From Skermanella pratensis (GTDB taxonomy: Bacteria; Pseudomonadota; Alphaproteobacteria; Azospirillales; Azospirillaceae), in the NCBI RefSeq assembly GCF_008843145.1, contig NZ_CP030265.1, positions 2,032,001-2,096,000 of the forward strand: 64,000 nt of DNA, in the 5' to 3' direction. Shown piece by piece: positions 9,444-44,738 of the stretch. The notes under the pieces are model-generated. The model was not told the DNA's origin, made no database searches, and worked only from the letters and a program-made list of their open reading frames with translations. Both the position numbers and the translations under genes were made by a program. Position 1 is the stretch's first letter, and each line of letters begins with the position of its first letter.

Positions 9444-9465
9444 CCGGACGGAGAGGAAAGAAGAA

Positions 9466-12806: not shown

Positions 12807-14056
12807 AAGCCTCAAGCCCCCCTTCGACTCCGACGGAGGTCCGCAGCCCGCTGTAGATCTCGTCGCGCAGGGTTGAGCAGCGGCGCTTGAGGGCGCCGAT
12901 CTCGCTCTGCGCGCGGGACCGCGCGTCGCCGCCGGCGGTAATGCGCTCCGCCTCACGGTCCAGTTCTTCCTGGGCTTCCTGGAGCGGCCCGCGCGAAACC
13001 TTGAGGACGACTGCCTCCAGGGTATCGGCTTCCACCTTCGCCTGATCAGCAAAGGCGTTGCGCAGCGTCAGGCGAAGATTTGCCAAGTAGCGCGCCTTCT
13101 CCTCTTTGGCCTTTTCTTCTCGATACTGGAAGAACAAGTCAAGTCCAGCGGCTAGAAACGGTATAGCCTTTCCAAGCTTCCCAGCCACTTTTGCGGCACC
13201 TTGCCCCATCTTTACCGCTTCCCATGGCCGGAACTTCTTTCCGAGCGTCTTCCCGACTTCATAGATTATGTTGCGTAGTTCCGCAGCATTGTCAGCGGCA
13301 AACTGAAGACCCTCCTGAAGTGGTTTGCCCGTGGCCTTGAAGAAACGGAGAACATACTCCGTGCCTTGGTTTGGACCGGAGTTCTTATGGTCGATCCCTA
13401 ACCGCTCGGCATGCTCCGCTTCGATTCTGGCGACATCCTGCGCCAAAGGGGTTTGCCCGAGATCCTCCAACTCGGAATTCGCCAGGGCAATGGCGTCCCG
13501 CAGGTCCGCTTCGAGATCGTCATAGACCTGATTGATCGGTGCGATGACCTGGCTCATGGCGGTCGTGAACAGGCTGTCCAAATCTTCGCCTGTCGTTGTG
13601 TCCGAGATTTGCTCCACTGCCTCGTCCGTCTGGGACATCACCGTCGAATAAGCCTGCTGCTTCCAGGTTTTCCGGACATCGACAAGCTTGCGCTGCAAAC
13701 GCTCCAGCACTGCCGATTTCCGTCGAAGCAACTCAAGCCGCTTCCGGTCATCATCCGAAGCCGCGAGCCGGGCCTGCAAACTATCGAGAAGGTCGGATAC
13801 GATGGTCAAAGGCGTCGTCAGACGCCCAGCGATGCCGGCATCGGCGACAAAACCGTCCAACCCATCCACCAGTTCACGCATGCGACTCTGCTGAATGAAC
13901 CGCTGCCGATTTTCCCCTGCTCCGGAGGCACGCAGATACTTCGACGCGGCGCATGGATAGATGGGAATGCCTTGGTGAGGCCCCAGAACTTTGTATACCT
14001 CGCCAAGGATTGTGGCTTCGGAATTGTTTTCCCGATCAATCTTATTCACTACCAGA
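12775..14056 (-). pseudogene. Dynamin-like (LeoA-type) GTPase, N-terminal half removed by IS insertion
   Basis: Reading away from the IS end, the first codons give L-V-V-N-K-I-D-R-E, the G4 motif NKxD of a GTPase preceded by its hydrophobic strand. About 25 residues later PCAASKY fits the G5 (SAK) motif. The remaining 400 residues are helical: a glycine-rich hydrophobic stretch (AAKVAGKLGKAIPFLAAGLDLFF) that could be a membrane-binding paddle, then a long charged coiled-coil-like tail. This matches the stalk part of bacterial dynamin-like proteins. G1-G3, including the P-loop, are absent: the IS begins exactly before the G4 strand. The stop overlaps the 3' end of the convergent DUF499 gene by about 32 bp. 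The LeoA-type assignment is inferred from layout. Confidence 0.65.
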
Positions 14057-16086: not shown

Positions 16087-16255
16087 GCGGTGCTCGTTCT
16101 GCGACAGAGGCCACGCTGTCCGGAACGGCTGGGGCAATGCCTGTCACAGGTGCCAGCGCTAGCTGTGCAAGTGCTGCAAGGCGTGCTTCGACCATCACTT
16201 TCCGAAATCCGATCCAGCACCGCATAAAGGCCTGTTGTGGTCTCCGATGCCACTG
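16087..16255 (+). pseudogene. Zinc-finger transposase remnant in the 15883-16463 gap
   Basis: A short frame reads C-S-F-C-D-R-G-H-A-V-R-N-G-W, then (after an in-frame stop) LCKCCKACF. The paired CxxC arrangement resembles the N-terminal zinc ribbon of IS1/ISL3-like transposases. No other part of such a gene is present. The rest of this 580-bp gap shows no supported gene, though it must contain the promoter for the following operon. Confidence 0.3.
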
Positions 16256-19792: not shown

Positions 19793-21112
19793 TCATTCGG
19801 TATCCCGCCCGATGTCCTCATCCACAGGATCCCCTGGCCTCCCGCCTGCGCCGGGATCCCGCTCCGATTGATGGCCGGTCACCCGCAGGACGATGTCCTC
19901 GAGGTCCTGCCCGGAATTGCGCGTCCGCTGCGTGTCCCGCCACAGGTGGGTGTAGGTGCGCAGGGTCATCGCCGGATCCGAATGCCCCAGTCGGTACTGG
20001 ACCTCGGAGACCGAATAGCCGAGGTGAATGAGGCCCGAGGCGTAGAAATGCCGGAACGCGTGGAAGGCGTACTTGTGAGTCCCGTCCGCGCCGGTCACTC
20101 CCGCCCTGATCTGCATGGGGTGGAGAAAGCGCCGGTAAAGGTTCTGCACCTGATAGGGCCTGCCGGCGGCGTTCGGAAACACCAGCCCGGACGTTCGGCG
20201 TCCGCCCGCGATGTGCCATTCCTTCAGGATGCGCACCAGTTCGTGGCCGATCTCGATGTCGCGTATCCCGCTCGTACCGGTTTTGGTGTCACCTATCGTG
20301 CCCCACTCGTCGGCACGCTGCTCGACTCTGATCACCCCCTTCTTCAGGCTCACGCAACGCCAGTCCAGCCCCCGCAGTTCCGAGATACGCATGCCGGTGA
20401 ACGCGGCCATGCACAGCATCGGGTAGAACGCCGGGTAATGCTCGCTCGTGACCGCCAGCATGCTCTGCATTTCCATGGGGGTCGGGATCTCCACCCGCCC
20501 GCAGAAGGGATCACCGTTCACGGCGCCGACCCTGCGCCGCTTGGCCCGCGTCCGGCGAAGCGTTGTCGCCACGTTCTGGGCAACCTTGCCGCGCTCCATG
20601 GCGATGTTGATCACCGTCTTCAGGTAGGAAAGCACCTTCCGGGCCAGCGTGTCCGACCCCTTTGCCAGCCGCTCCTCCCCCGTCGGTTCGCCGCGCCTGA
20701 AGACCGGCACCGGGAACCCACCCTTGCGCAGCATGTCGCGGAACTCGACGACATCCGATTGCGTGAGCTGGGACAGCTTCCTGTCGCCGAGCAGCGGCTT
20801 CAGGTAAAGCCGGGCGTGCTCCTGGTACTGCTTCATGGTCGAGCGCTCGACCTCGCCCTGGCACAGCGCCAGCCACAGGTCACATGCATCGGCGATCGTG
20901 ATGCTGTCCCGGTCGGGGGTATGCGTTCCCTTTTTCAGGTCGACCCTGGCACCGGCAAGCCACTCGACGGCCTCCTTCTTGTTGCGGAATATTGACTTGG
21001 TGACACGGTTTCCTCGAGCGTCAAGATATTCCACACACCAAATATAGGAACCGTCTTTTCGGCGGACCGATTTTCCATCCTTCTTGCGCTGATATATGGC
21101 GTTGGTGCTCAT
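19793..21112 (-). CDS. Tyrosine site-specific integrase
   Basis: A 439-aa protein with a phage/ICE-integrase layout: an N-terminal arm-binding part (KDGSYIWCVEYLDARGNRV), a SAM-like core-binding domain (about residues 70-180) and the catalytic domain. Catalytic residues are visible: R in TGMRISELRGL, H-x-x-R in HAFRHFYASGL, H in YRLGHSDPAMTLR and the nucleophile Y in RTYTHLW. It probably integrates the element that also encodes the two excisionase-like HTH proteins and Rep upstream on the same strand. Start 21112 (ATG) was preferred over the TTG four codons earlier. No tRNA-like attachment site was found nearby. Confidence 0.9.
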   Translation of the reverse strand: MSTNAIYQRKKDGKSVRRKDGSYIWCVEYLDARGNRVTKSIFRNKKEAVEWLAGARVDLKKGTHTPDRDSITIADACDLWLALCQGEVERSTMKQYQEHARLYLKPLLGDRKLSQLTQSDVVEFRDMLRKGGFPVPVFRRGEPTGEERLAKGSDTLARKVLSYLKTVINIAMERGKVAQNVATTLRRTRAKRRRVGAVNGDPFCGRVEIPTPMEMQSMLAVTSEHYPAFYPMLCMAAFTGMRISELRGLDWRCVSLKKGVIRVEQRADEWGTIGDTKTGTSGIRDIEIGHELVRILKEWHIAGGRRTSGLVFPNAAGRPYQVQNLYRRFLHPMQIRAGVTGADGTHKYAFHAFRHFYASGLIHLGYSVSEVQYRLGHSDPAMTLRTYTHLWRDTQRTRNSGQDLEDIVLRVTGHQSERDPGAGGRPGDPVDEDIGRDTE

Positions 21113-21619
21113 TGGAATCCGCAAAATATAATTTTAACAAATTGAATGATAATGAAATTAGATTAAGAAATCAATAAACCACAATAATGATAATCGATTC
21201 CTAGTTCGTTTTAAGTAAGTGAAAATTACTTTGATAGACATTATGTAGCCAGAAATTATTGCGGTCAGTCTTCCGGAGTGCGATCATGTTCTGGTCGTTC
21301 AGCCAATGTTGGGGGCTCCCGTCTTTCTTTGGCAGTCCGACCTCATCTCGTCGTCTGATAAGCCCATGGTTTCGGCGGAGATCGAACACCTGTTCTCCAT
21401 CGGCAGCTAGGTTAGTCCGTGAGCCGCAACTAGGATTCTTGCCGGTATGACAATTATCGCAGCACCGACATACGTTTTCGTGGCCGGCTGGTGATGTGGA
21501 GTGGCAGTGCTGTGCCTTCTCAGGCCGTTGACCGATTACCCCCCTGAAGATTTCAAGTCCTCGGATGGTGCAACCCCGGCACAGTCCAGGACATGCCAGG
21601 GGATCGGGCATTCGTGCAA
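21113..21619. other. AT-rich intergenic region with one possible small Cys-rich ORF
   Basis: Bases 21113-21250 are very AT-rich and could hold the integrase promoter. A minus-strand frame ending at 21201 contains CRCCDNCHTGKNPSC and GLIRRRDEVGLPKKDGS, which could be part of a zinc-containing protein, but no start or family can be supported. Confidence 0.35.
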
Positions 21620-22669: not shown

Positions 22670-23599
22670 TCAGGCACTGGTGGCGAGGGACGGGAGCATG
22701 AACCAGGGAGGGACAACACCGGGGGCATCCGGAATGTACTGGTCGAGGAGAGTGTTCCAGACTTCAAGCTGACCGGTCTTGATCACCTTGCCTGAGCTAG
22801 GCTTGCCGGAGATGCCGCGCAACAAGCCAGTCGTCTCGATGAGCCGAACACCCTTCACCCCATCAAGGTAGGCAACCACCATCTGGTCGTCGTACAGGAC
22901 TTGGTTCTGGCCCATGGAAAGTTCCGGCTTGGTCATGTACCCGATCCAACCCACGATCTTTTTCGGGTCCGCTGTCTCGACCGTCACGTTCCGAATGCTC
23001 TTCGCGGCCACGGCCTGTGTCCAGTCCGACGCCCAGTTCAACTCCGCGTCGTCCAGCAGTACAAGGGCATGGATGTGCGGATTGAACTGCATGGGTTCGC
23101 TCTTGTCCTCGCGCTGCCCGAAGCCGGTTTCAAGGGAATAGAGCGCGCCCTTCACGGATCGTTGGTATGGCCGGCGGCGCAACAGCTTGGCAAAGCTCTT
23201 TTTGAGAAAGGGAAGGGTGGACGGGAGCGCCTCGGCCGTGACCTTGCCGAAGGTCAGGGTCAGCGCGACCCATCTCAATCCCTGCTCCGACCAGGCCGAG
23301 TCGGTGACAAAATTCCAGAGCTGCGCGACTTTCCTGGCTTGCCGCCGATGCATACATAGCGCGCAGGCCCGGGAGCGGCAGTACCTAACCTGGTACCGGT
23401 CGTAGCAGCTGCCATCCGGCCGCTCGACCGTTTCGAGCCTGCGCTTCTCGGCGCAACTCTTCAGGCGGTCGGCTTCCCTGTCGAGGTCGGCTCGACCGTG
23501 GGAACCTCCGATGCGGAGACAATCCTCAATGGCCGCAGTCTGACGACGATGATCGTCAAAGGACGGCCGCTTGAAGCTTTTAATGATTTTCGTTGTCAT
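22670..23599 (-). CDS. Rolling-circle replication initiator (Rep_1-like)
   Basis: A 309-aa protein. A cysteine cluster (RYCRSRACALCMHRRQARK) is followed by motif 1 (VALTLTFGKV), the metal-binding HUH motif FNPHIHALVLL and the Y-containing motif 3 (GWIGYMTKPEL). These are the hallmarks of HUH rolling-circle Rep proteins, which nick the double-strand origin through the tyrosine. Together with the integrase and excisionase-like genes this suggests a plasmid-like integrative element. The start ATG at 23599 is followed by a lysine-rich N-terminus (MTTKIIKSFKRPSF). Confidence 0.85.
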   Translation of the reverse strand: MTTKIIKSFKRPSFDDHRRQTAAIEDCLRIGGSHGRADLDREADRLKSCAEKRRLETVERPDGSCYDRYQVRYCRSRACALCMHRRQARKVAQLWNFVTDSAWSEQGLRWVALTLTFGKVTAEALPSTLPFLKKSFAKLLRRRPYQRSVKGALYSLETGFGQREDKSEPMQFNPHIHALVLLDDAELNWASDWTQAVAAKSIRNVTVETADPKKIVGWIGYMTKPELSMGQNQVLYDDQMVVAYLDGVKGVRLIETTGLLRGISGKPSSGKVIKTGQLEVWNTLLDQYIPDAPGVVPPWFMLPSLATSA

Positions 23600-29944: not shown

Positions 29945-30301
29945 CTAGCCGCCGTCAATGCCGATCGACAAGGCGATTCGCCGCCGGATCTCGGCCAGTT
30001 GAGCGTCGGTGATCCTGGATGTGGTTGTCTGTATCCGCTGCTTTGACGTTGCGGTGACATGGTGGGCGATGGCCCAGGAAGCCTTGGGGCACCCATTCTC
30101 CGGCGTCGGGGCGATGGGTACGGACAGGGACGGCATAGCCAGTTTTGGATCGTCGGTAAGCGGCACGAGGATGGCATTCGGATAAGCTGGGTCGAACAGG
30201 TCGCTGTCCTCCACCACAATGGCAGGCCGTCTCTTGTTCGCCTCCTTGGGAAGCGCATCCCGCCAGTCCACGATCACGATGTCGCCCGCCGTCACGTTCA
30301 T
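29945..30301 (-). CDS. PemK/MazF-type endoribonuclease toxin
   Basis: A 118-aa protein. TAGDIVIVDWRDALPKEANKRRPAIVVEDS is the MazF/PemK beta-barrel start with the conserved R-P-A-I/V-V; AILVPLTDD and SWAIAHHVTATSKQRI follow. MazF-like toxins cleave mRNA at short sites. The ATG overlaps the stop of the antitoxin gene (ATGA), the usual antitoxin-first operon with translational coupling. Confidence 0.88.
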   Translation of the reverse strand: MNVTAGDIVIVDWRDALPKEANKRRPAIVVEDSDLFDPAYPNAILVPLTDDPKLAMPSLSVPIAPTPENGCPKASWAIAHHVTATSKQRIQTTTSRITDAQLAEIRRRIALSIGIDGG

Positions 30302-30546
30302 TGCCTTCCGCCCTCAGCTGTCGGCGTGCCCCAGTCAGCATAGAAAGCCTGCGCCTCGGGCGATGAGGCCACATACTCCGCCACGCTCCGGCTTTCCGCC
30401 CGGATCCTTTCCTTGCGTATCTTCCTGGCCTCTCTTTCAGCCATCTCGCGGAGATAGGTGGATAGGCCGATGCCCCGCTCCCTGGCGGCGGCCTCAAGCA
30501 CCTCCTGGGCGTCATCGTCCAGGCGCACAGATACAGGAGAGCCCAT
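30298..30546 (-). CDS. Ribbon-helix-helix antitoxin
   Basis: An 82-aa protein: PVSVRLDDDAQEVLEAAARERGIGLSTYLREMAEREAR is a ribbon-helix-helix DNA-binding domain, with an acidic, disordered C-terminal part that would neutralise the MazF/PemK toxin encoded next. Start 30546 is set by GGAGG 7 bp upstream. Likely autoregulates the pair by binding the promoter upstream. Confidence 0.85.
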   Translation of the reverse strand: MGSPVSVRLDDDAQEVLEAAARERGIGLSTYLREMAEREARKIRKERIRAESRSVAEYVASSPEAQAFYADWGTPTAEGGRQ

Positions 30547-30783
30547 CTTTAACCTCCAAAATGCCTTCGCTGGCAGCATCCAGGAATGTATGACGGTTTG
30601 GTGCTACGGACAAGTAATCTCGCGTGTCTCGTAGCTTCACGAGATCGACGCGCAGTCGTGGTGGCGGTTGCTATATAAGACCGCATTATCCGGCGGTGTG
30701 CTCCATGGAATTTTGCATTCTTGCGCCTATTCCATGAGATGCTTTGTGGCTCCCAAACAGGGACCTGCCACCGAGTGTCCGTA

Positions 30784-31641
30784 TCATCCCGGCAGCCTTT
30801 GCCGCACCTCGAAGAAGCCCTTCCACGGATCGCCGGCCGGTAAGTCGGCCATGCCGTAGCGGGGCGCAGCGGCGGCGTCGCCCAGCGTCTCCCAGGCCAG
30901 TGGCATCGCCACCGGCGCGCCGGGCCGCGCGCGGGTCGAGTAGGCGGCTACCGCAGTGGCGCCGCGACTGTTGCGCAGGTGGTCCTGGAAAATACGGCCA
31001 CTCCTTGCCTCCTTCAGCGGGTTGGTCGTGTAGCGCTCGGGACGGGCCGCCGCAAGCCGCGCCGCCACGTCGCGCGCGAACGCCTTGACCGTTTCCCAAT
31101 CGGCGTGCGGCTCGATCGGGACCATCACGTGCAGGCCCTTGCCGCCGGTCGCCTTGACGAAGCCGCGCAGGCCCAGATCCTTCAAGGCCGCATGGATTGC
31201 CCTTGCACCCTCCACCACATGCGCCCACGGCACGCCCTCGTTCGGGTCAAGGTCGAAGACGATGCGGTCCGGCCGCTCTAGGTCGTCGGTGGTGGCTCCC
31301 CACGGGTGCAACTCCAGCACGCACGCTTGGACCAGCGCCGCCAAGCCGCTCATGTCGTCCACCGCCAGCCATTCGTCGTCGCCGTCGCGCACCCTGCGAA
31401 CCGCCTTGTGCAGCCCGGCCGACGAGTGTTTCTGGACAAAGCAGGCGCCGTCGTTGCCGGACGGGCAGCGCACCAGCGTCAGCGGTCGGTTAGCCACATG
31501 CGACAGAATGCGGTCGGCGATGTCGGCATAGTACTCCGCCAAGGCGCACTTGGAGACGCCCTGGTCCGGCCAGAGCACCCGGTCGGGATGGGTGAGCGTG
31601 ATCCCGGCGATCTCGACGGTTGCGGCGGTGGCTTTGGGCAT
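30784..31641 (-). CDS. ligD: Stand-alone LigD polymerase (primase-polymerase) domain protein
   Basis: A 285-aa protein made only of the NHEJ LigD polymerase domain: ITLTHPDRVLWP near the start, ELHPWGATTDD, catalytic DxD in VFDLDPNEGVPW and TGGKGLHVMVPI with the conserved H. The last visible part, YGMADLPAGDPWKGFFEV, is the normal end of this domain. No ligase or phosphoesterase domain is attached, and no ku gene is in the window, so this is a split or accessory copy. Ribosome site GGAG before 31641. Alphaproteobacteria often carry several such ligD paralogues. Confidence 0.88.
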   Translation of the reverse strand: MPKATAATVEIAGITLTHPDRVLWPDQGVSKCALAEYYADIADRILSHVANRPLTLVRCPSGNDGACFVQKHSSAGLHKAVRRVRDGDDEWLAVDDMSGLAALVQACVLELHPWGATTDDLERPDRIVFDLDPNEGVPWAHVVEGARAIHAALKDLGLRGFVKATGGKGLHVMVPIEPHADWETVKAFARDVAARLAAARPERYTTNPLKEARSGRIFQDHLRNSRGATAVAAYSTRARPGAPVAMPLAWETLGDAAAAPRYGMADLPAGDPWKGFFEVRQRLPG

Positions 31642-31772
31642 GGCGCGTCTCCTGCTGTTACAGTGGAAACGCCGCACCGCGACGATCGGTGCTGAATCGG
31701 CATCAATATCGGAGGGCTCAGGGCGAAGGCCGTCGGTGTACTATCATGCAGCATCTCAATATGGGAGCGGTG

Positions 31773-32327
31773 ATGGAAAACCCGCGGCGGCAGAGGATGG
31801 GGCGGGACGAGTTCCGGCAATGGGCGGAACAGCAGGAGGGTGTGCGCTACGAGCGCGTGGACGGTGAGCCGGTCGCCATGGCGCCCGAGCGCGCCATCCA
31901 TGCTCGCATCAAGGCCCGCGTCTGGCAGGCCCTCGACCGCACTCTCCGGGACCATGGCGGCGACTGCGAGGCTTTGCCCGACGGCATGACGGTCGAGATC
32001 GACGCGGACACCGACTACGAGCCCGACGTCGTCGTCAACTGTGGCCCGCCGATCCCGGACGATGCGGTTGCCGCCACCAATCCCGTAATCGTCGTTGAGG
32101 TGCTTTCCCCCGGCACCAGGGGCATCGATACCGGAGCCAAGCTCGACGGCTACTTCCGTGTCCCCGGCATCGTCCACTACCTCATCGTGCTGACGGCCAG
32201 GCGTGGCGTGATCCACCACCGGCGTGCCCACGACGGCGGCATCGACACCCGCATCCTCTCGAGCGGAAAGATCGAACTGGATCCGCCCGGCATCGCCATA
32301 GACATCGACGAGATCTACGGACGCTGA
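31773..32327 (+). CDS. Uma2-family (DUF820) putative endonuclease
   Basis: A 184-aa protein. The PD-(D/E)xK core reads RYERVDGEPVAM, YEPDVVV (catalytic D), VIVVEVLSPGT (ExL/V variant) and DTGAKLDGYFRVPGIVHYLIV. The Uma2 family is abundant in cyanobacteria and other bacteria with many paralogues; the biological target is unknown. The start at 31773 follows GGGAGCGG; upstream frames lack the family pattern. Confidence 0.85.
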   Translation: MENPRRQRMGRDEFRQWAEQQEGVRYERVDGEPVAMAPERAIHARIKARVWQALDRTLRDHGGDCEALPDGMTVEIDADTDYEPDVVVNCGPPIPDDAVAATNPVIVVEVLSPGTRGIDTGAKLDGYFRVPGIVHYLIVLTARRGVIHHRRAHDGGIDTRILSSGKIELDPPGIAIDIDEIYGR

Positions 32328-32430: not shown

Positions 32431-32514
32431 GTCGCTCCAGCGCGCCGTGTTTTTCGCTGCAAGACCTGACAGAGCCCCAGGGGCACGGAACCGGCCAGGA
32501 TATCGGGGAACAGC

Positions 32515-32682
32515 CGGCCGAGACGGGTCCGGAGAGCCCTGGGATGCGCGCGCCGAGCCTACCGCTCGCCCTTCATATCCCCGCCAACCCCTTGCCAGCG
32601 CGGGTGAATCCGCGCCCGGCAACGGCCCCGATTTTCTGGAAATCGTTCTGGAAACCCACAGAGACGCTCTGGTAACCCATTG
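32515..32682. repeat. Direct repeat (about 167 bp), left copy
   Basis: Begins CGGCCGAGACGGGTCCGGAG and ends TAACCCATTG; the other copy at 38804-38970 has the same orientation with scattered differences. The right copy is continuous with an ISAzo13-type transposase fragment, so the repeat is probably the terminal region of that element. Confidence 0.8.
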
Positions 32683-33146
32683 TTCTCAAGATCGCTGACC
32701 AGACCCATTATCTCTGGCGCGCTGTGGATCAACACGGTGTCGTGCTCAATGTGCTCGTCCAGAGCCGGCGCAACAGGAAGGCGGTCAAGCGGCTGCTGCG
32801 CAAGCTGCTCAAGCGACAATACCGGACTCCTCGCGTGATGATCACGGATAAGCTGAAATCTTACGGGGCGGCGAAGCAGGAGATCATGCCCGGCGTCTAG
32901 CACCGGCAGCACAAGGGGCTCAACAACCGGGCGGAGAACTCCCACCAGCCAACCCGACCGCGAGAACGACAGATGAAGCGGTTCAAGTCGGCCCGACACG
33001 CCCAGCGCTTCCTTTCCACTCTCGACCAGATCAACAACCTCTTCTTCCTGCCCTGCCACCGTATGACTGCAACCGACTACCGTGCCGATCGGGACCGCGC
33101 CTTCCAGGCGTGGCACGCCGTCTGCGGCATCATGCTCGCCGCATAG
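32683..33146 (+). pseudogene. IS6-family transposase, C-terminal fragment
   Basis: Reads VLKIADQTHYLWRAVD, then RKAVKRLLRKLLKRQYRTPRVMITDKLKSY and NNRAENSHQPTRPRERQMKRFKS, the last two thirds of an IS6 (IS26-like) DDE transposase. An in-frame TAG at 32898 interrupts it and the N-terminus is missing. It abuts the direct repeat without a gap. Confidence 0.85.
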
Positions 33147-33205: not shown

Positions 33206-35131
33206 TTAACGATGCCGGTTCACCTCACTGATCAAGATCGCTTTCCACCCCCAGTTCCTCTTCCTCTTATCAAAGCTCTGGACAGCGACTCCAGTCACGA
33301 CATCCTCGTCATTGATATCACTGGCTCTCACGAGATCAGGCGGAATGAAGATGTTGTCGTCAGTGAAGCCCAGGCCATTCCTTACTTTGACCATACTCCG
33401 AAAGGACCGGCAGACCTGAGCGCCAGGCGTTTTGTCCGTCGCATTCGCCGTTAGGGCGCGCATGCCTCCTCCCTTGCGAGACTGAAACGTGGCCAGCCTG
33501 AGGGAGACGAATGCGCCGACAGCGGCTATCCCCTTGTAGTGGGCGAGAGGGAAGGTTCCCTGTGCTTCCCGGCCGGCCGTGAAGTGCATCAATCCCTTGC
33601 TGGGGTTGACCTGGTCGACGATTCCAACCGTTTCAGGGAAGATGTCAAAGGGCGCACCGTCCGGACGGTCGGAGACCGCATGGAGAATGAAGCGCCGCTC
33701 GCCCTCAGGGTCGTAGTCGGCCTTCACCCGGATGGGCTGGCCAATCCGCGGCGACTTCAGCTTCAGCCTGTTTTCCGGGATAGACACTTCGGCGGGAAGA
33801 AAGGGGGTCTTGAGATAAAGCTTCCGCCTCGGCTTCCCGTCCTGTCCTTCAACAGTGAATGTTTCTCCCACGCAGGCGTCGATCCAAGGGAGGTCAGAGA
33901 ACAGGAGGTCGTCGGCTGCGGCCGCGAAGCGCGCATAGAAGCCGACCTTAGGGGGCGTGGCATCGATGGCTGCATACCAGTCCATGGCGGTCATGTCCTG
34001 CACGTCGACAGGCACACGATGGCCGGAGCGCTTCTTGTGCTCGAGGATCCGTTCGATCTCCCCCTTTGCCTCGGCCGCATGCCCGGCGTCCAGGAACTCG
34101 CGCGCGAGCTTCAGGCGAAGCGGACTCACGAAGTTGTCATCCTGCGAGCAGGTCAGAGACTTGCAGTAGCAGGCCAGGCGTGTCCCAGGATCGGCCTGAA
34201 GATCTCCGAGAAGCTCCCATGCCCAATACTCCTGGGATTTCGTCTTGGTGAAGGAGAGCGCAAGGTTCCGGGCCTCGTCCTGGCGTCCAAGCGCCCGGAA
34301 GAGCTTCACTTTGTTCAGCTCCAACCAGTGGTTGTCCGGGAAGCGCACCATCATGCGGTCGACGAAGAGCAGCATGTAGTCGAGATCGGCACGGTTGCCG
34401 TTTTCGGCGGCTTCCTTTGCGGCCTTCATGACCACCTTCTCGGCGAGCGCGGGGATGCTCTTCCCGTCCTTCGCGGCGAAACGCTCGAAGTCCTCCTGCC
34501 GGAGATGCTCGAGCCCCCAGAGACGGGCGAAGGGCAACATCTTGAGATGGTCGCTAGAGGCGAGGCGCGAAGCCATGTACAGCATGCAGCTGTGAAGCTG
34601 CGAGGGACGCTCGACCTCGAGTCCCATATAGGCGTTGAGATGGCGCCGAGCTTCGCCCACGACGGCCGGCGGCAACTCCCCCGGGAGATTCTTCTCCAAG
34701 AGGTCCTTTGTCGCTTTGTAGAGATCCCAGCCGTAATTCGTCCTGTTCTCGGGGCCAAGCAGCTTGCGGCGGGCAAGGTCGGCGTAAATCGTGATCGCGT
34801 CGCGAAGGCGCTCTGCCTTGCTGTGCTCCTGCGCCTGGGCAATTTCGTCTGCTCCCTCCTCGAGGAGCGAGAGCGCACGGCGACGCTCCTTGGTAAGGAT
34901 CTCATCGTTCTCGGGCGGTTCCAGAGCGCGCAGCTGACGGGCATAATCCTCGGCTGCTTCACTGGAGCCCTTCCGGGCGTTCTCCTTGAGAAGGTCGATG
35001 AGGCACCAAGCATAGGCTCGAATATCCCAGGCATCTCGGTGGGGCGATGCCATGCGCTCCCGCGCCATCGCGTAGGCGGCATCGATCTGGCCGTCTCGGC
35101 GGAGCTTGAAGACCTCGCTCGACGAGCTCAT
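33206..35131 (-). CDS. TPR-repeat protein with two C-terminal cold-shock-like OB folds
   Basis: A 641-aa protein. Residues 1-400 are helical repeats (TPR-like: DAAYAMARERMASPHRDAWDIRAYAWCLIDLL; HWLELNKVKLFRALGRQDEARNLAL; AKGEIERILEHKKRSG). The C-terminal third is beta-rich with two cold-shock-like OB patterns: GIVDQVNPSKGLMHFTAG and NIFIPPDLV, VQSFDKRKRNWGWKAILI. It thus looks like a scaffold that binds single-stranded nucleic acid. Its ATG overlaps the stop of the upstream helicase gene (TGATG), so the two are translationally coupled and probably form a complex. I do not recognise a named family. Transposon debris on both sides points to acquisition as a unit. Confidence 0.75.
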   Translation of the reverse strand: MSSSSEVFKLRRDGQIDAAYAMARERMASPHRDAWDIRAYAWCLIDLLKENARKGSSEAAEDYARQLRALEPPENDEILTKERRRALSLLEEGADEIAQAQEHSKAERLRDAITIYADLARRKLLGPENRTNYGWDLYKATKDLLEKNLPGELPPAVVGEARRHLNAYMGLEVERPSQLHSCMLYMASRLASSDHLKMLPFARLWGLEHLRQEDFERFAAKDGKSIPALAEKVVMKAAKEAAENGNRADLDYMLLFVDRMMVRFPDNHWLELNKVKLFRALGRQDEARNLALSFTKTKSQEYWAWELLGDLQADPGTRLACYCKSLTCSQDDNFVSPLRLKLAREFLDAGHAAEAKGEIERILEHKKRSGHRVPVDVQDMTAMDWYAAIDATPPKVGFYARFAAAADDLLFSDLPWIDACVGETFTVEGQDGKPRRKLYLKTPFLPAEVSIPENRLKLKSPRIGQPIRVKADYDPEGERRFILHAVSDRPDGAPFDIFPETVGIVDQVNPSKGLMHFTAGREAQGTFPLAHYKGIAAVGAFVSLRLATFQSRKGGGMRALTANATDKTPGAQVCRSFRSMVKVRNGLGFTDDNIFIPPDLVRASDINDEDVVTGVAVQSFDKRKRNWGWKAILISEVNRHR

Positions 35132-37796
35132 CAGCCTTTCCTGACAGTCAGCAGGTTGATCACCTCAGACAGGAACGCACGCGGCGCCCGCGACGGGTTA
35201 ACCGGCTGGCATTTACCAAAGGTGCCCCTTCCGTCGTAATAGATATCGACAACCACCGCGTCGGAGTCGCGGGCGAAGGTGTACCGCTGGCACCATTGCA
35301 TCTCGGCCACGCCCACGATCCGGATCCCCCACTCCTTGGCCCGCGAAAGGAGCCGCGTGTGGAATGTGCGGAGGAACTCCTCGCTGGGGATATAGATCAA
35401 TTCGTCCGAGGAGGACGCTGGATTGGCGGGTGGCAGGAAGCGGCCCGACAGGGTACCAAGGCGCTGATTCAGCTCGTCGCTCAGCGCGTTGGCCTGGACC
35501 GGTATGACCTTTCCGATCACTCCCCGGCCGTTGTAGTAAATGTTCACTCGGGCGGATTCACCGTCACGGTGGAAGAAAAATGCTTCCTGATACGGATTAT
35601 GGGCAATGTCCTCGATTTCGATGTTGGTCCCTTCAAGGACGGCCTGCACCTGCCCTAGGAGGGCAATGGCGACAGGAGGCATATCCACCACCGTGGTAGG
35701 CCCCGGCTCCCGATGCGGGGGATTGACCATGTAAAGACGACCCTTCGCTCGTGTCATCGCTGTGTAGAGCCATCGGAAGTAGTCGGGTGAGAGTTCCTTT
35801 TGGCCGCGCGGGCAGACGACGAAGACGTGCTCCCATTCGCCGCCCTGGGCCTTGTGACAGGTGACTGCGTAGCCGAACTTGACCCGCAAGGCATTGAAAT
35901 ATGGGTCAGCCCGAAGAACCTCTTGGAAGCGTTTGCGGTCCTTCCTCAAATGCTCGTGCCGCATGCAGAAGTCGATATACAGGGCCTTCTGCTCGTCGGA
36001 CCCGATGTTCGGATTGTTGTCGTAGAGCAGGTTCTCGAGGATCTTCGTCCGGATGAACTGCGCGCGTCCATCCGTGTCCCGGACACCCAGCAAGGCCCCC
36101 GGAAGGAAAGGGCCACCTCGACGGTCTCCACGGCCTTGGTGTCGGGGTTCTTTCGTCGGATGGATATGCGGCGGGTCTCCACCCGTTCGTCCACCTCCTT
36201 AGCCAAGATGAAGTCGCCATTCGCGATGGAGAGGCCACCGACGGTGATGTTCGCAACCACCATCAGCTTGTCGCCAGGAACGATCTCCGACTTTCCCGGA
36301 AAGAAATGCTCGCGAATTATGCGGTTGTAGCCAGCGGCTTCCGCGTTCGAGCGGGCCACGATGATGGCCTTGTCGTTGATCGCGCTGTCGCAGGACTCGA
36401 GGTAGCGGGAGAGGACCAAATCGACCTCGACCTTCTCAATGTCGGGCACGCTGAAGTCGAAGGTCAGCTCGCAGAACTTCCCGCTCCTCAGGCTGTTGCG
36501 AAGCGGCATGACGTTTCGAAGAACGCCGCTGTCCGCCCTCTGCCGGACGACGTCCTCGAGCTCGTAGCTGCGGCAGCTTACGCCGTAGGTCTTGCGGAGG
36601 TAGTCGACATCGAGCGCGGGAGAGAATGACATATCGATGGGGGGCAGCTGCGCCGCATCCCCGATCAGGATGATCTTTTTGTCGTGGTCGTTGTGATCCA
36701 GCCCTACGAAGTCGAAGAAATCCTTCAGAAGATACCCGGAACCCGAGCGGAAGAACTCGCCCTCCTGGTAGATGTCCGAGATGAGCGACGCCTCATCGAC
36801 CATATAGACGGCGTTCGCCGCGTCGTCGTTGATCGCGATCTGGGCGTAGTTCTTGAAGGTTTCCGACCCTTTGAGGCCCTCGTCGGTGTATTCGATCAGT
36901 TCCTTGAAGTTATAGATCGTACGATGGATCGTTCCGGCTTGGTACCCGGTCTTCCCCTCGATCACTCGGGCGGCGCGTCCCGTGGGAGCACAGAGGCGGA
37001 ACCTACGCCCTTGGGCCGAAAGGTAGTCTGCCAAACCTCTAATAATAAAAGTTTTTCCGGTACCCGCATGGCCCTTGAGCAGAAAGACCTTCGCCCGGGG
37101 GTCCGCGAAGAAACACTCGAGTTCCTCGACTGCTTCCTCTTGGCTCTTCGAGAGGGTCGCGCCGGCGAAGGCTTCCCTCAGGCGGATGGGGGTCCTGAGC
37201 TCCCTCGTGGTGGGATCGACAGCATCGAACGCCTTGTCGGAGGCCTCCCTCTCCTGCCGGCTGTTGTCCTGGAGCAGGCGCGCAGGTTTGGCGGCGGGGC
37301 CGGACGCCTCCTCTCTCCCACTGCCGGTCTCGGCGAGCGCCTCCTCGACGGTCTCGCGGGACGCGCCGGCGGGCTGCGCCCCAGGATCGGGGAGGCGAAA
37401 CGGCCCCGAGGCATACAACTCTTCGGGTGCGATGAGGCGACAGAACCACTGGGCCAGAGCCCACGCATCCGCGAGAAGGCCTGCCGCCTGCGCCGCCGAG
37501 ACCGTGCCGCCATGGGCCGCCTTGTTCCCAAGAAGCCTGAGAGTGTGAAGCTTCCCGAGAAGTCGCTCATTCAGAAGGCGGTTGTCTTCGAGGAATCGCA
37601 GGCGATCGATCTGCCGACCGTTCGTGAGTTCTGGTAAGCTTTTCAATTGGAAAAAAGCGGAGATAAGAAGCTCCCCAAAGCACCGAAGGCGAATGGCTGT
37701 CACATCCGCATCGACATGGAGTGCGAATTCGGCTTGAACGGCACGCTTATGCAATTCCGGCCAGCGGGTTTGTAGGAACCCAAAACTACTCGTCAA
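35131..37796 (-). pseudogene. DUF4145-RecD/UvrD-like SF1 helicase, frameshifted in a G5 tract
   Basis: The N-terminal 120 residues match DUF4145 (HEPN-like: FALHVDADVTAIRLRCFGELL, LHTLRLLGNKAAHGG). The AAA_30/RecD-type core has Walker A LKGHAGTGKTFI (about residue 258), Walker B MVDEAS and GDAAQLPP. The frame breaks at 36096-36100 (five C on the plus strand); with one more base it continues as FRGALLGVRDTDG to KFGYAVTCHKAQGGEWEHV (motif V) and YTAMTRAKGRLYMV (motif VI). The tail has two copies of a short module (NIYYNGRGVIGKVIPV; DIYYDGRGTFGKCQPV). The start is TTG at 37796 with GGGGA upstream. It is the first gene of the pair with the TPR/OB protein. An assembly error is as likely as true inactivation. 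Confidence 0.8.
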
Positions 37797-37876
37797 AGCC
37801 GAATATCCCCAGTGTAGTCATTCTCGTCCGGAATGCGGATTTCTGACAGGGTTTACATAACGCGAGTGCATGGAAC

Positions 37877-37918
37877 CTTAACAACGGGAAAATAGATCTA
37901 CGCTGACAGGTTGTTAAG
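37877..37918. promoter_or_regulatory. Inverted repeat upstream of the helicase/TPR operon
   Basis: CTTAACAAC (37877-37885) and GTTGTTAAG (37910-37918) are perfect inverted 9-mers 24 bp apart, in the short non-coding region that must contain the operon promoter. CTGACAGG also occurs twice here (near 37847 and 37903). It could be an operator; there is no direct evidence. No gene is seen in the rest of 37797-38123. Confidence 0.35.
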
Positions 37919-38123
37919 CGGTAATTGTGTCACAGGGGCAAAGTTCGGGCACTGAGCGGGGCGCTGGAGTTTACCCACGACCGATTTGATCCCGACTCGC
38001 GCTAGGCATGTCGAACTTGGAAAAGCTGTCCCTGTCTGGCCTGTTGCGTGGCGACTGAACGGCACCGTCAAATTGGCGGCGGGTTGGATCGCGCAATCGG
38101 TGCGAGTTGGTCAGGAGGTGGCC

Positions 38124-38421
38124 ATGACGACCTCGACCAAGCCCCCCTACGTCGGCCACCGCTTTTCTCCGAAGCTGATCAGCCACTTGGTCGGGCTGTA
38201 CTTCAAGTTTCCACTGAGCCTTCATATGGTGGAGGAGATGCTGGCCTTCCGGGGCATCGTGGTCAGCCACGAGACGATCCGGCAATGGAGCCTTAAGTTT
38301 GGCCAAGCGTTCGCCAACATCATCCGCCGGCGGCTGCCCCGGCCGGACGACACGTGGCATATGGATGAGGTTGTTCTCAAGATCGCCGGCCAGACCCATT
38401 ATCTCTGGCGCGCCGTGGATC
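38124..38421 (+). pseudogene. IS6-family transposase, N-terminal fragment
   Basis: Starts with a good ribosome site (AGGAGGTGGCC) and ATG, reading TKPPYVGHRFSPKLISHLV, then FPLSLHMVEEMLAFRGIVVSHETIRQW, TWHMDEVVLKI and GQTHYLWRAVD. It is cut at about 38421, where unrelated ISAzo13-like sequence begins. It shares about 48 bp with the start of the C-terminal fragment at 32683 but is a different copy (IAGQ against IADQ). Confidence 0.85.
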
Positions 38422-38803
38422 TTCGCCGACGCCCGATGGCCTTGGCCCCACAAGGCCACTGCCAGCTTCTCCAAGCTCTTCGATACCCACAGCAGTGGGC
38501 GCTCCGGGCGCCCAGCGTCATCGGCGCGACCAACTCCAGCAGAGCGCGCTCCAGCATCACATCTGTCTCCGTCAGCCGCTTGCGCCCGCCCGGTCAGCGC
38601 GGGCGTGGCCCAGACGGCGGCACCCCGTCGGCGATCTCCTTGAGCCCGTGCCAGATCGTGCTGGGGGGCGATCCCGGTAGCCCGTGCCACGGCGGCGATG
38701 CCACCACAGCCAAGCGCCTAGGCTTGGGTGGCGGCAAACAAACGGCGCCTCCGCTGGTCAAGGCTGGGACGCAGAAGGGCGTATCGGTAGCGTGGGAATA
38801 GAC
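38422..38803 (-). pseudogene. ISAzo13-type transposase, N-terminal fragment
   Basis: On the minus strand broken frames read YRYALLRPSLDQRRRRLFAATQA, GGIAAVARATGIA and ERPLLWVSKSLEKLAVALWGQGHRASAK. This is the N-terminal third of an ISAzo13-family transposase, with at least one frame change. It is fused at 38421 to the IS6 fragment and continues rightward into the direct repeat. Confidence 0.7.
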
Positions 38804-38970
38804 GGCCGAGACGGGTCCGGAGAGCCCCGGGATGCACGCGCCGAGCCTGCCGCTCGCCCTTCGTCTCCCCGCCAACCCCTTGCCAGCACGGGTGAATCCG
38901 CGCCCTGCAACGGTCATTTTTTCTGGAAATCGTTCTGGAAACCCACAGAGACGCCTTGCTAACCCATTGA
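38804..38970. repeat. Direct repeat (about 167 bp), right copy
   Basis: Same orientation as 32515-32682. The two copies bracket the helicase/TPR operon and IS6 fragments. Confidence 0.8.
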
Positions 38971-39028
38971 TTCTGCTTGGGACGAAATGAGACGGCGGGA
39001 GACAACTCCGGGCCGGGTTCCAGGCACG

Positions 39029-39065: not shown

Positions 39066-39680
39066 AACTGGTAGCGGAGGAGGGATTTGAACCCCCGACA
39101 CAAGGATTATGATGTCTCCGACTGATGCCGGGAACTTGGACGAACGCTTTGATTTTCCAAAATATTTTGGAAGATGGCGGCGGGTTGGTCAGTGGTTCTC
39201 GGCATTGTCAGCCAAGGTCAAGTCGGCACACTAGGCAAGCAGGATAATAACCATGGATATCAGCGTCGTGGTGATCACGTATCTCTAGAGAATCTGCCGC
39301 GACCGGTCGATGCTGTGGCCGCTGACAGCAGCCATCTCGGTCTCGGTGACGCTGGCCTCGCCCATGCGGGTCATCGCTGTGCGGCGGAGATCCTGGAACC
39401 GCAATCCTGTCAGGCCCGCCTCCGCCATGGTGGCTGTCCACCGCTCCTCGAACCGACGTCGCTTGAAAGGGTGACCCCGGTGGTTCAGGAGGACATTGGG
39501 CATCTTCACGCGGGTGGGCATCCAGAACATCCTTGAGCGGGCTCATCACTAGAACGCTGACGGCCTGAGCAATCTTATCCTGGGTCAGGCTGATGCGGTG
39601 ACCATCGTATGTGACCACCGGAGCCGGAGCAGGTCACCTTCCTGCTGGGCCGTATAGAGACCCAGCAGGAGGGCCAATCG
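39063..39680. repeat. Large inverted repeat, left arm
   Basis: The reverse complement of this 618-bp stretch occurs at 44289-44738 plus 46353-46520, interrupted only by an IS1182 element. It contains a tRNA 3' half, an 18-bp palindrome (39155-39172) and a dead integrase remnant. Identity ends sharply at CGATTGGCCC on the inner side and just after the tRNA on the outer side. Confidence 0.85.
39069..39112 (-). other. 3' half of a CAT-anticodon tRNA (attachment-site remnant), left copy
   Basis: Read on the minus strand: anticodon loop T-CAT-AA, 3' anticodon stem TCCTT, variable loop, T-arm GGGGG-TTCAAAT-CCCTC, acceptor CTCCGCT, A and CCA. The sequence before the loop (GGAGAC) cannot pair with TCCTT, so the 5' half is missing. 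This is how an att site inside a tRNA gene looks at the far junction of an integrated element. Confidence 0.7.
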
Positions 39681-39925: not shown

Positions 39926-40711
39926 TCATGAGACAGCACCCCGCTTGGCCATGCTGCGTTTGAAGCGGTATGATTCACCGCCGGTTTCGATGATGTGGGC
40001 TTGGTCGGTGACCCGATCGAGCACGGCACCGCAGAGCCGGGGGTTAGGGAACACCTGCCCCCACTCCGAGAAGGGCAGGTTCGTCGTCACGATCAGGGCC
40101 GCCTTTTCCGCCCGGTCGGCAATGATCTGGAACATCAATTCCGCGCCCATTTCCATCAGAGGCACGTAGCCCACTTCATCGATGCAGATCAGATCGACGC
40201 GCTCCCAGCGGCCCAGCACCCGGCTCAGCTGGCTGGCGGCGCGGGCTTCCACAAGCTCGTTGATCAGCGCCGAGGCACTGGTGAACCGAACGCGCCGCCG
40301 CTGCTGACACGCCGCTACGCACAATCCCAGCGCCAGGTGGGTTTTGCCGGTGCCCGCTTCGCCGATCAGCACCACCGGCTCCGCCCGCTCGATGTAGCCG
40401 CCCGCGGCAAGGTCCGCGAGCCGTGCTGCCGACACCGAGGATTGCCGGAAGTCGAACTCGGCCAGGGTCTTGACCCGCGGCAGATGGGCTTCCTGGATCC
40501 GACGCACTACCCCCTTGCGCTCACGCTCCTCGATCTCGGCCGTCAGCAGCGCATCCAGATACTGGACGTGGCCATGCCCCTCACGGATCGCCGCCTGGGC
40601 CAGCGTTTCGAACTGCCCGGCAACGGTCGGCATCTTCAGGGCGCGACAATGTTGCCGAACTGTCTGCTCATGAAGGGAGGCGGCGGGCGATGGCGTCTTC
40701 CCCCTGGTCAT
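39926..40711 (-). CDS. istB: IS21 helper ATPase IstB
   Basis: A 261-aa AAA+ protein of the IstB/DnaC type: Walker [16 protein letters not shown] (about residue 105), Walker [13 protein letters not shown] and sensor-like [11 protein letters not shown]. IstB organises target DNA and stimulates the IstA transposase. The ATG at 40711 overlaps the istA stop (ATGA), as usual in IS21. Confidence 0.92.
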
Positions 40712-42249
40712 GGCGCCACCTCCTGATCCCGGTCGAGCAGCCGGTCGTATCCCGTCAGGCACGGCATCGGACGGTCGTAGCGTGTGAGTTCGCCGACTTC
40801 AGCCATCTCCGGCGCCGGACGCTGCTGTCCGGCACAGGTCAGCAGGTAGCGGATCGCCGCACCGTCCGAACATCCCAGCTTCACGGCGGTGTCCACGGCC
40901 TGACGCACCGCGTCGTGCCCGAACTCCCTGGCGAGCTGGATGACTGCTATCATGGCCCGCGTGCCGTGCTGGCGCCCCTGGCGGTCAATCAGCCGCTGCC
41001 ACAGAACATCGAAGCTCGCCGGCCACCGTCCCGCCCGCCGCCACTGCTCCAACGCCGTGGATCCCGCCAAAGCACCGGGTTTGCGCTCGAGTACATCGAG
41101 ATAGTGCTCCAGATCCAGGATCTGCTGGCATCTTGAATAGCATCGTTCATGACGGGCGACACACCGGCCGTCATGCCAGACTTCCAGATGGGCCGGATAG
41201 ACTTTCACCTGCACCGTGGTCCCGGGACGCACCGGCGTCGAATAGGCGTTGGTCCTGACCCTGACGCAGCCGCCGCCATCAACGATGGGAAAGCTGATCT
41301 CGGCCAGATCGAACTCCTCTGCCGGCAGGGCCAGCAGATGATTGCGCTCTTCCGCCATGGCTTGCCCGACCTGCTGGCTGCGCCCATCGATCAGCCGCCC
41401 TTCATCCTCCCGGCAGCGCATCAGCAGCAGCTCGTTCAGCACTTCGAGGCTGGCCGCCTTGGGAACCGGAACCCAGTGATTGCGCCGGAAGTAGCCGTTC
41501 TCACCCTCGACGCCGCCTTTCTCGTGACCGGCACCGGGCGTGCAGAAGTCCGCCTCGAAGTGCCAGTGCGAGCGCAGGGCGATGAAGCGTTCGGTTTCCT
41601 CGCGCAGCCTCCCGCGCAGCACCTTGCGCACCGCGCTGGTCAGATTGTCGTAGCGCAGCAGCCTGAAGACGCCGCCAAAGTGCCGGAAGGCGAGTTCGTG
41701 GCCTTCCAGAAAGGCCTGCTGGGTGGCGCTCCGGTAAGCCCGGTGGAAAACGCCGCCACCGGCCATCGAGCGCATGCAGAAAACCTGAAGCTTTGTGAGA
41801 TCCCCGGCCAGTTCGGCATAGGCTTCGTACCAATCCACCTGGCCTTCGCCGCCCCACTGGTAGGACTGCGCCACGTAGGTTTCCCGGATCAGCAGCCCGA
41901 GTGACCGTTTACGGTCGCGAACGTAATTGCGGACCGTCGATTCCGCGACCGCGTGGCCCGGCATCTCCGCCAGGATGCGGCGATAAATCCGACGCGCCGT
42001 ATGGCGCTGCTTGCGCGGAGCCTGCCGGTCCGCCTCCAGAATGCCGTCGATGAACCCTTCGACCGCTCCCAGCACCGGCCTGGGCCGTTGGCGGTATGTG
42101 CGAACCGGAGGAAGCGCGCTGTTCACCGCCTGGCGCACAAGCCGGCGGTGGACACCAAACTTCCGGGCGACACCCTTGATCGTTCCAATCCCGAATTCAT
42201 ACTCGCGCCGCAACTGCTCGAATAGCTCCACCTTCGATCTCCTGTCCAC
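40708..42249 (-). CDS. istA: IS21 transposase IstA
   Basis: A 513-aa protein with an N-terminal HTH ([22 protein letters not shown]) and an rve-type DDE core: [12 protein letters not shown] (D), YDNLTSAV (D) and [12 protein letters not shown] (E). C-terminal beta-barrel and helical parts follow. It is full length for the family and looks intact. Confidence 0.92.
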
Positions 42250-44288: not shown

Positions 44289-44690
44289 CGATTGGCCCTC
44301 CTGCTGGGTCTCTATACGGCCCAGCAGGAAGGTGACCTGCTCCGGCTCCGGTGGTCACATACGATGGTCACCGCATCAGCCTGACCCAGGATAAGATTGC
44401 TCAGGCCGTCAGCGTTCTAGTGATGAGCCCGCTCAAGGATGTTCTGGATGCCCACCCGCGTGAAGATGCCCAATGTCCTCCTGAACCACCGGGGTCACCC
44501 TTTCAAGCGACGTCGGTTCGAGGAGCGGTGGACAGCCACCATGGCGGAGGCGGGCCTGACAGGATTGCGGTTCCAGGATCTCCGCCGCACAGCGATGACC
44601 CGCATGGGCGAGGCCAGCGTCACCGAGACCGAGATGGCTGCTGTCAGCGGCCACAGCATCGACCGGTCGCGGCAGATTCTCTAGAGATAC
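44289..44690 (+). pseudogene. Tyrosine recombinase remnant (right arm)
   Basis: Same remnant as 39250-39680, inverted: RLALLLGLYTAQQEGDLLRLRW, LRFQDLRRTAMTRMG and SGHSIDRSRQIL then the same TAG stop. Both copies share the same inactivating stop and frameshift, so the duplication came after inactivation or the arms were homogenised. Confidence 0.75.
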
Positions 44691-44738
44691 GTGATCACCA
44701 CGACGCTGATATCCATGGTTATTATCCTGCTTGCCTAG
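44289..44738. repeat. Large inverted repeat, right arm (first part)
   Basis: Reverse complement of 39231-39680. Ends at CTAG (44735-44738), the target site of the IS1182 element. Confidence 0.85.

What the first reader, a model, noticed from the sequence alone, without database searches (positions are those of the whole stretch)
33206..37796. Candidate uncharacterised defence module: DUF4145-SF1 helicase coupled to a TPR/double-OB protein
Two genes with overlapping stop-start (TGATG at 35131) encode a HEPN-like DUF4145-RecD/UvrD helicase and a TPR scaffold with two cold-shock-like OB folds. The block is framed by 167-bp direct repeats and IS6/ISAzo13 pieces, so it travels as cargo. A nucleic-acid motor plus ssNA-binding scaffold with a HEPN-like domain fits an anti-phage or anti-plasmid role; I cannot match it to a named system.
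Basis: partly seen in the sequence, partly recalled or inferred. Interest (0 to 1): 0.8.

Follow-up and report, generated by a model that had tools for sequence, protein, structure and literature searches.

The report
A broken TOTE defence gene pair
Two coupled bacterial genes, a nucleic-acid motor and its binding partner, belong to an already catalogued family of predicted virus-defence systems (TOTE), and in this genome the motor gene is broken.

Summary
The two-gene block is real and at the stated coordinates, but it can be named. PADLOC already lists both as candidate system PDC-M16A/B. It is a TOTE (TPR, OB, TBP, Effector) conflict system. The window's helicase is split by a frame change; 13 of 13 long-form relatives checked are unbroken. 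Stop and start overlap in 14 of 15 loci; the marker domains are rare and mostly sit side by side. Some relatives lie beside McrBC-like, AbiE or Mokosh genes, and on plasmids. The "167-bp repeats" are 182 nt at 90% identity with a third copy elsewhere; the same-genus relative has one copy only, so the frame looks like insertion-sequence debris. Inferred mechanism: OB and TBP parts recognise nucleic acid, an SF1B motor acts on it, and an HsdR-type, HEPN-class head is the only candidate effector; no nuclease domain was recognised. Ordinary, with one testable lead.

The parts
33206..35131 (-). TOTE partner gene (PDC-M16B): TPR-like region with DUF7017, then S1CSD-TOTE-1 and S1CSD-TOTE-2 (OB-type) domains; 641 aa, intact
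   Evidence: Pfam DUF7017 1.4e-40, S1CSD-TOTE-2 5.2e-20, S1CSD-TOTE-1 4.5e-18; PADLOC PDLC04488 2.4e-252 over residues 1-638
35946..37796 (-). TOTE helicase, 5' piece (PDC-M16A): HsdR-type N-terminal DUF4145-like domain, linker, SF1B motor core with Walker A and B; frame lost after about 36099
   Evidence: Pfam AAA_30 4.1e-22, DUF4145 sub-threshold; NCBIfam HsdR N-terminus 3.5e-23 and RecD2 6.3e-23; PADLOC PDLC04472 3.8e-219
35131..36093 (-). TOTE helicase, 3' piece in another frame: end of the motor (UvrD_C_2) and two TBP-TOTE stretches
   Evidence: Pfam TBP-TOTE 7.1e-44 (2 stretches), UvrD_C_2 3.9e-20; PADLOC PDLC04472 1.1e-116
36093..36099 (-). place where the helicase reading frame changes
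   Evidence: tblastn pieces 37775-36099 and 36093-35149 in two frames
32506..32686 (+). downstream copy of a 182-nt repeat of insertion-sequence debris
   Evidence: 90% identical to 38794-38974; third copy in the genome
32712..33127 (+). piece of an IS6-type transposase gene
   Evidence: about 74-75% identical to annotated IS6 transposases of Roseomonas plasmids
37986..38801 (+). ORF with a piece of an IS6/IS240-type transposase
   Evidence: Pfam DDE_Tnp_IS240 1.6e-7 over 28 residues; 38371-38421 is 94% identical to 32680-32730
38794..38974 (+). upstream copy of the 182-nt repeat; also present beside the same-genus copy L051
   Evidence: 94% identical to L051 15852-16033, the one copy in those 20 kb

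Best explanation
The block is a two-gene TOTE conflict system (PADLOC candidate PDC-M16), a predicted defence against phages or other invading nucleic acid, whose helicase gene is broken by a frame change in this genome. Likely working of an intact copy: the two proteins are made from overlapping genes and act as one complex. The tandem S1/CSD (OB-type) domains of the partner and the tandem TBP-like domains of the helicase bind the target nucleic acid; the TPR-like part holds the complex together; the RecD2/Dda-type SF1B motor moves along or unwinds the target. The only candidate effector I can see is the helicase's N-terminal HsdR-type DUF4145 (HEPN-class) domain, so the output is either RNA cleavage by that domain or disruption of invader replication or transcription intermediates by the motor itself. 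Shown here: family membership, domain order, gene overlap, co-occurrence, neighbourhood, breakage. Inferred: complex formation, target, order of steps, output. Family assignment about 0.95; defence role of intact relatives about 0.75; detailed mechanism about 0.3.
For: TOTE-named Pfam domains in both genes and near-complete PADLOC PDC-M16A/B matches. Overlapping stop/start in 14 of 15 loci. TBP-TOTE genomes: 5 of 385 in the class, 5 of 5 with S1CSD-TOTE-2 within about 2 kb; 5 of 398 in the phylum, 4 of 5 with DUF7017 next door. Defence-family neighbours in 4 of 8 long-form loci examined. Plasmids in 17 records; 4 viral-collection loci. Motor: RecD2/Dda relatives in the PDB. N-domain: HsdR model, DUF4145 above cut-off in 3 of 4 relatives, R38, E42, H84, R87, N91 and H95 invariant in 10 of 10 sequences. 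PMC3710099 passages place DUF4145 in HEPN and say the TBP-like domain of RNase HIII binds DNA-RNA hybrids. Breakage.
Against: No activity test of TOTE was seen in my literature searches. Four of 8 examined long-form loci showed no strong defence neighbour, and no random control was run. Short forms without the N-domain exist (L054, L056, L057), so that domain is not needed in every TOTE system. The R-to-H spacing in the N-domain (seven residues between) is longer than the usual HEPN motif as I recall it. No structure model was obtained, and the N-domain profile finds no solved structure above chance. The two pairs on conjugative plasmids lie inside transfer gene regions, which also fits a plasmid function.
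Confidence: 0.7

Rival explanations
1. The pair serves the mobile elements that carry it (plasmid transfer, maintenance or competition between elements) rather than protecting the cell from phages.
For: Found in 17 plasmid records, 9 mobilizable, 6 non-mobilizable and 2 conjugative; in Leisingera and Frigidibacter it lies between relaxase and type IV secretion genes; 4 loci in IMG/VR contigs.
Against: Chromosomal or large-contig copies exist (window, L051, L053); several lie beside recognised defence genes. Carriage by plasmids is also common for defence systems (general knowledge).
Confidence: 0.2
2. A nucleic-acid repair or RNA-processing pair with no conflict role.
For: The motor resembles RecD2 and Dda; the binding domains are generic nucleic-acid folds.
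Against: Rare and patchy (5 of 385 and 5 of 398 genomes with TBP-TOTE); the window's genome has its own RecD2 at 52153-54354; defence and mobile contexts.
Confidence: 0.07
3. The frame change in the window is a sequencing or assembly error and the system is intact here.
For: One frame change only is seen; the 5' piece and the partner show purifying selection against the same-genus copy (dN/dS 0.24 and 0.31).
Against: The 3' piece has dN/dS 0.70 (a poorly aligning linker may inflate it) and the window lacks about 110 nt there that L051 has. HmaB in the same window also reads as two overlapping ORFs, which fits either decay of the island or a general error rate.
Confidence: 0.35

Closest known systems
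TOTE conflict systems (Aravind, Iyer and Burroughs 2022, named through PMC12458937; Pfam PF22707, PF22708, PF22721)
   Same: TPR-like region, tandem S1/CSD (OB) domains, tandem TBP domains, joined to a helicase
   Different: PMC12458937 (passages) says TOTE systems often include RNase H domains; none was recognised in the families scanned here. The HsdR-type N-domain takes the effector place. I could not read the defining review, so I cannot say whether this architecture is drawn there.
PADLOC candidate PDC-M16 (PDLC04472 and PDLC04488)
   Same: Both proteins match near their full length; PDLC04472 is 930 aa and includes the N-domain region
   Different: Nothing beyond the break in the helicase and a shorter linker
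TALON (PMC12458937)
   Same: TPR-CSD and TBP genes shared with TOTE (passages)
   Different: TALON has a YprA-like helicase and a NERD nuclease; here the motor is SF1 RecD2-like and no NERD was recognised
RecD2 / Dda SF1B helicases
   Same: Motor motifs
   Different: Far below the RecD2 model's cut-off (80.8 against 500 bits); TBP domains and HsdR-type head added
HsdR (type I restriction) N-terminus
   Same: Residues 2-203 align with the HsdR model PRK11448, positions 3-199 (3.5e-23)
   Different: Below that model's whole-protein cut-off (81.6 against 729 bits); the motor is SF1, not SF2; no HSDR_N nuclease match in Pfam
RNase HIII / RnlA TBP-like domains
   Same: Weak match of the TBP part to RnlA_toxin_N (9.2e-5, 23.1 bits against a cut-off of 24); PMC3710099 passages say the RNase HIII domain binds DNA-RNA hybrids
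   Different: Different enzymes and gene order; hybrid binding was not tested

Membership tests
TOTE conflict system | TPR protein with OB-type (S1/CSD) domains | tested here: met
   DUF7017, S1CSD-TOTE-1 and S1CSD-TOTE-2 above cut-off; generic TPR model sub-threshold
TOTE conflict system | TBP-like domains of the TOTE type | tested here: met
   TBP-TOTE, two stretches, 147.7 bits against 27
TOTE conflict system | Effector | tested here: inconclusive
   Helicase plus HsdR/DUF4145-type N-domain present; no nuclease domain matched; catalysis untested
TOTE conflict system | The components occur together | tested here: met
   5 of 5 TBP-TOTE genomes in the class sample, 4 of 5 in the phylum sample
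PADLOC PDC-M16 | Both proteins M16A and M16B | tested here: met
   A is in two pieces in the window
HEPN RNase | Conserved R...H catalytic motif | tested here: inconclusive
   R87, N91 and H95 invariant in 10 of 10, but R and H are seven residues apart; usual spacing four to six is from recall; DUF4145 motif 'mostly conserved' in PMC3710099
HEPN RNase | HEPN fold and RNase activity | not testable with these tools
TALON | YprA-like helicase and NERD nuclease | tested here: not met
   RecD2/PIF1-type SF1 motor, no NERD match in either gene
IS-framed composite element | Matching repeats on both sides of the cargo in the window and in the same-genus copy | tested here: inconclusive
   The 182-nt repeats are 90% alike with a third copy elsewhere, and L051 has one copy only; but L051 has a different, perfect 45-nt direct repeat at 7059-7103 and 16127-16171, on both sides of the pair
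Active anti-phage system | Protection against phage | not testable with these tools
   needs a bench test

The most novel reading that the evidence does not exclude
Long-form TOTE pairs are nuclease-free, helicase-driven RNA-targeting systems: the HsdR-type head, with its invariant R-x3-N-x3-H and R, E and H residues, is a HEPN RNase switched on when the TBP and OB parts engage DNA-RNA hybrids or single strands of a replicating invader. That would link type I restriction enzymes to HEPN abortive-infection systems.
Probability: 0.15. Interest if true: 0.6.

Novelty: new member of a known kind. Interest (0 to 1): 0.27.

Why it matters
It settles an 'unknown module' as a TOTE/PDC-M16 pair and narrows the open question for this branch: which part is the effector. 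Intact pairs are at hand for a direct phage test, and invariant N-domain residues give clear targets for inactivation. The window copy itself is a decayed or mis-sequenced example.

Tried and rejected
Composite transposon framed by the '167-bp' repeats: not supported, because they are imperfect, have a third copy and occur once near L051. Against that, L051 has perfect 45-nt direct repeats on both sides of the pair, so movement by another frame is not excluded.

Programmed frameshift: rejected, because 13 of 13 long-form relatives have a continuous helicase frame.

TALON membership: rejected (SF1 motor, no NERD match).

A nuclease gene beside the short forms: two ORFs of 602 and 613 aa upstream in L054 had no Pfam or PADLOC match, and the gene next to the helicase is an MFS transporter; the flanks of L056 and L057 were not scanned.

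PDB search with the N-domain profile gave only chance-level hits (E 0.058 and 0.67). The best PDB hit of the helicase profile is called 'Putative deoxyribonuclease' (9kwf, 8.6e-31), but all three matched stretches are motor motifs, so I do not read it as a nuclease.

S1CSD-TOTE-2 hits: 189 of 385 genomes at E 0.001; 14 reach the curated cut-off, of which 6 score 59 bits or more and 8 only about 27-30 bits; 3 of 14 control genomes also ring (2 over the cut-off). The weak hits listed are mostly in frames of 400-550 aa and I take them for Rho-like proteins (recall, not checked); I counted the 6. One of the 6 (G336) lacks TBP-TOTE; its hit lies about 375 bases from a contig end, so its partner may be off the contig.

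Literature: 'TOTE conflict system' and 'PDC-M16' gave no paper; wider searches were judged by their listings. PMC12458937, PMC3710099 and PMC11090510 were seen as passages only.
Full report
What is there. On the minus strand, 33206-35131 is an intact 641-aa ORF whose ATG shares its A with the stop of the gene before it. Upstream lie two overlapping ORFs in different frames, 37796-35946 (616 aa) and 36093-35131 (320 aa). They match one PADLOC model, PDLC04472, in order: the first over positions 1-571, the second from 575 on. tblastn with an intact plasmid relative gives two main pieces in two frames, 37775-36099 and 36093-35149. So this is one helicase gene broken near 36.09 kb. Intact copies exist: L005, L051, L052 and L053 each gave one unbroken match, five plasmid copies are annotated genes with only the terminal stop, and four IMG/VR contigs gave one unbroken match each; 13 of 13. 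L051 comes from a genome of the same genus. Plasmid DNA hits suggest that the genus may be Skermanella (not proven). Against L051, dN/dS is 0.24 for the 5' piece, 0.31 for the partner and 0.70 for the 3' piece. The last value includes a linker that aligns poorly, and the window lacks about 110 nt there.

What the proteins are. Pfam assigns the partner to DUF7017 (1.4e-40), S1CSD-TOTE-1 (4.5e-18) and S1CSD-TOTE-2 (5.2e-20), and the helicase pieces to AAA_30, PIF1 and UvrD_C_2 with two TBP-TOTE stretches (7.1e-44). PADLOC assigns the partner to PDC-M16B (2.4e-252, residues 1-638) and the helicase pieces to PDC-M16A (3.8e-219 and 1.1e-116). NCBIfam places residues 2-203 of the helicase on the N-terminus of an HsdR model (PRK11448, 3.5e-23) and the motor on RecD2 (6.3e-23); both are below those models' whole-protein cut-offs. 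A profile of the helicases finds RecD2, Dda and RecD structures; the best hit, 9kwf, is named 'Putative deoxyribonuclease', but its matched stretches are motor motifs. DUF4145 is sub-threshold in the window (18.9 bits) and in L051 (18.8), but above the 23.1 cut-off in L005, L050 and L053. In ten aligned N-domains R38, E42, H84, R87, N91 and H95 (L005 numbering) are invariant. PMC3710099 (passages) places DUF4145 in the HEPN superfamily, lists its fusion to a UvrD helicase, and says the TBP-like domain of RNase HIII binds DNA-RNA hybrids.

Name. PMC12458937 (passages) expands TOTE as 'TPR, OB, TBP, Effector' conflict systems and credits Aravind, Iyer and Burroughs 2022; that review is not in the library. 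'TOTE conflict system' and 'PDC-M16' gave no paper. In the listings of wider searches I saw no paper that reports an assay of TOTE. The library holds open-licence papers only.

Pairing and spread. Stop and start overlap by 4 nt in 12 of 15 loci, by 1 nt in 2 of 15 (window, L051), and the genes are 202 nt apart in 1 of 15 (L053, by its listed start); the partner's start in L060 is my choice. In 385 genomes of the class, TBP-TOTE is found in 5; all 5 have S1CSD-TOTE-2 within about 2 kb. Strong S1CSD-TOTE-2 hits (59 bits or more) are in 6; the sixth, G336, is near a contig end. A further 183 genomes have weak S1CSD-TOTE-2 hits, 8 of them just around the cut-off, as do 3 of 14 control genomes; I did not count these. 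In 398 genomes of the phylum, TBP-TOTE is in 5 and DUF7017 in 6; 4 are shared and lie about 1 kb apart or less; the three single ones are weak (29-34 bits). DUF7017 rings in 1 of 14 controls, TBP-TOTE in none. The window's own genome and G333 are in both samples. The partner protein is in 4 of 99 relatives including the own genome, 17 plasmid records, 9 of them Acinetobacter, one phage record over a third of its length and 4 viral-collection loci. A scan of genome contigs by short exact peptides found one relative, L005.

Neighbourhood. Outside the window there are nine long-form loci with cellular or plasmid origin (L005, L046-L053). I scanned chosen neighbours of eight with PADLOC (not L048). 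Four have a strong defence-family neighbour: L005 (AAA_5 gene matching PDC-M26A, 1.8e-36, followed by a DUF2357 gene), L050 (MkoA, E 0, and a DUF262 gene), L052 (AbiEii 2e-98, with DUF6088), and L049 (HEC-06, 4.6e-21, about 7 kb away). The other four do not, by my reading: L051 has a Mutator-type transposase and no PADLOC hit in three proteins; L053 has one exonuclease hit (DEDDh 7.9e-26, PDC-S48 2.5e-12) in six proteins, which I take as generic; L046 has weak GajB-like similarity; L047 has weak RmrA hits and an annotated McrC gene about 12 kb away. No random-gene control was run, so this is context and not a test of enrichment. In the window itself Hma, MkoA-like and LeoA-like genes lie about 19-33 kb away.

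The frame. The repeats are 32506-32686 and 38794-38974, 90% identical over 182 aligned nt, with a third copy at genome position 1,981,007. The block 33216-38793 is 92-94% identical to L051. The 20 kb around L051 hold this repeat once, upstream. Pieces of IS6-type transposase lie on both sides in the window. I read this as layered insertion-sequence debris. A point against a simple dismissal: L051 has perfect 45-nt direct repeats at 7059-7103 and 16127-16171, enclosing the pair and a transposase gene, so the pair may have moved in another frame.

Mechanism. Shown: domain order, gene overlap, rarity, joint occurrence, defence and mobile contexts. Inferred: that the two proteins form a complex, that OB and TBP parts recognise foreign or abnormal nucleic acid, that the SF1B motor acts on it, and that the N-domain is the effector or a docking part. 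Short forms without the N-domain exist (L054 by Pfam; L056 and L057 by tblastn range), so motor, TBP and OB may be the core and the N-domain an added output. No structure model was obtained.

Verdict. A real, correctly located and already catalogued defence-type pair, with its helicase gene broken in this genome. Interest is low to moderate. The point worth a test is whether the HsdR/DUF4145-type head is an RNase.

Noticed in passing
window 2061-12246 (+): An Hma defence system: HmaA 2061-5606 (E 0), HmaB in two overlapping ORFs 6409-8001 and 7956-9443 (possibly broken or split), HmaC 9466-12246 with a Swt1-type HEPN domain and DUF499.
   Followed up: partly
window 202-1647 (+) and 12775-14049 (-): An ORF similar to the end of Mokosh MkoA (7.5e-28) and a dynamin-like ORF similar to part of LeoA (3.3e-37), both shorter than their models.
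   Followed up: no
window 29945-30579 (-): PemK/MazF-like toxin ORF (1.9e-16) next to a short ribbon-helix-helix-like ORF (sub-threshold): a likely toxin-antitoxin pair.
   Followed up: no
window 30784-31677 (-): ORF with a LigD-type primase-polymerase domain (7.6e-83), and a Uma2-type ORF at 31620-32327 (+).
   Followed up: no
window 39231-39680 and 44289-44738: A perfect 450-nt inverted repeat on either side of IS21-type genes (IstB-like 39926-40762, Mu-transposase-like 40708-42249); an integrase fragment lies in one arm.
   Followed up: no
window 52153-54354 (-): A RecD2 helicase with OB, HHH and SH3 domains, separate from the TOTE helicase.
   Followed up: no
window 22670-23599 (-): A rolling-circle Rep_1 replication protein (7.1e-20), with a phage-type integrase at 19793-21124: sign of an integrated plasmid-like element.
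   Followed up: no
L047 9218-13956 and L048 9218-13956: On two conjugative plasmids (Leisingera, Frigidibacter) the pair lies between relaxase and type IV secretion genes.
   Followed up: partly
L054 2404-6151 (+): Two ORFs of 602 and 613 aa upstream of a short-form TOTE pair have no Pfam or PADLOC match; ORFs of the same sizes are listed in L057, and one of 613 aa in L056.
   Followed up: no
L051 7059-7103 and 16127-16171: Perfect 45-nt direct repeats enclose the pair and a Mutator-type transposase gene in the same-genus genome.
   Followed up: partly
control genomes: DUF7017 rings above its cut-off in Methanocaldococcus jannaschii, so this domain reaches archaea.
   Followed up: no
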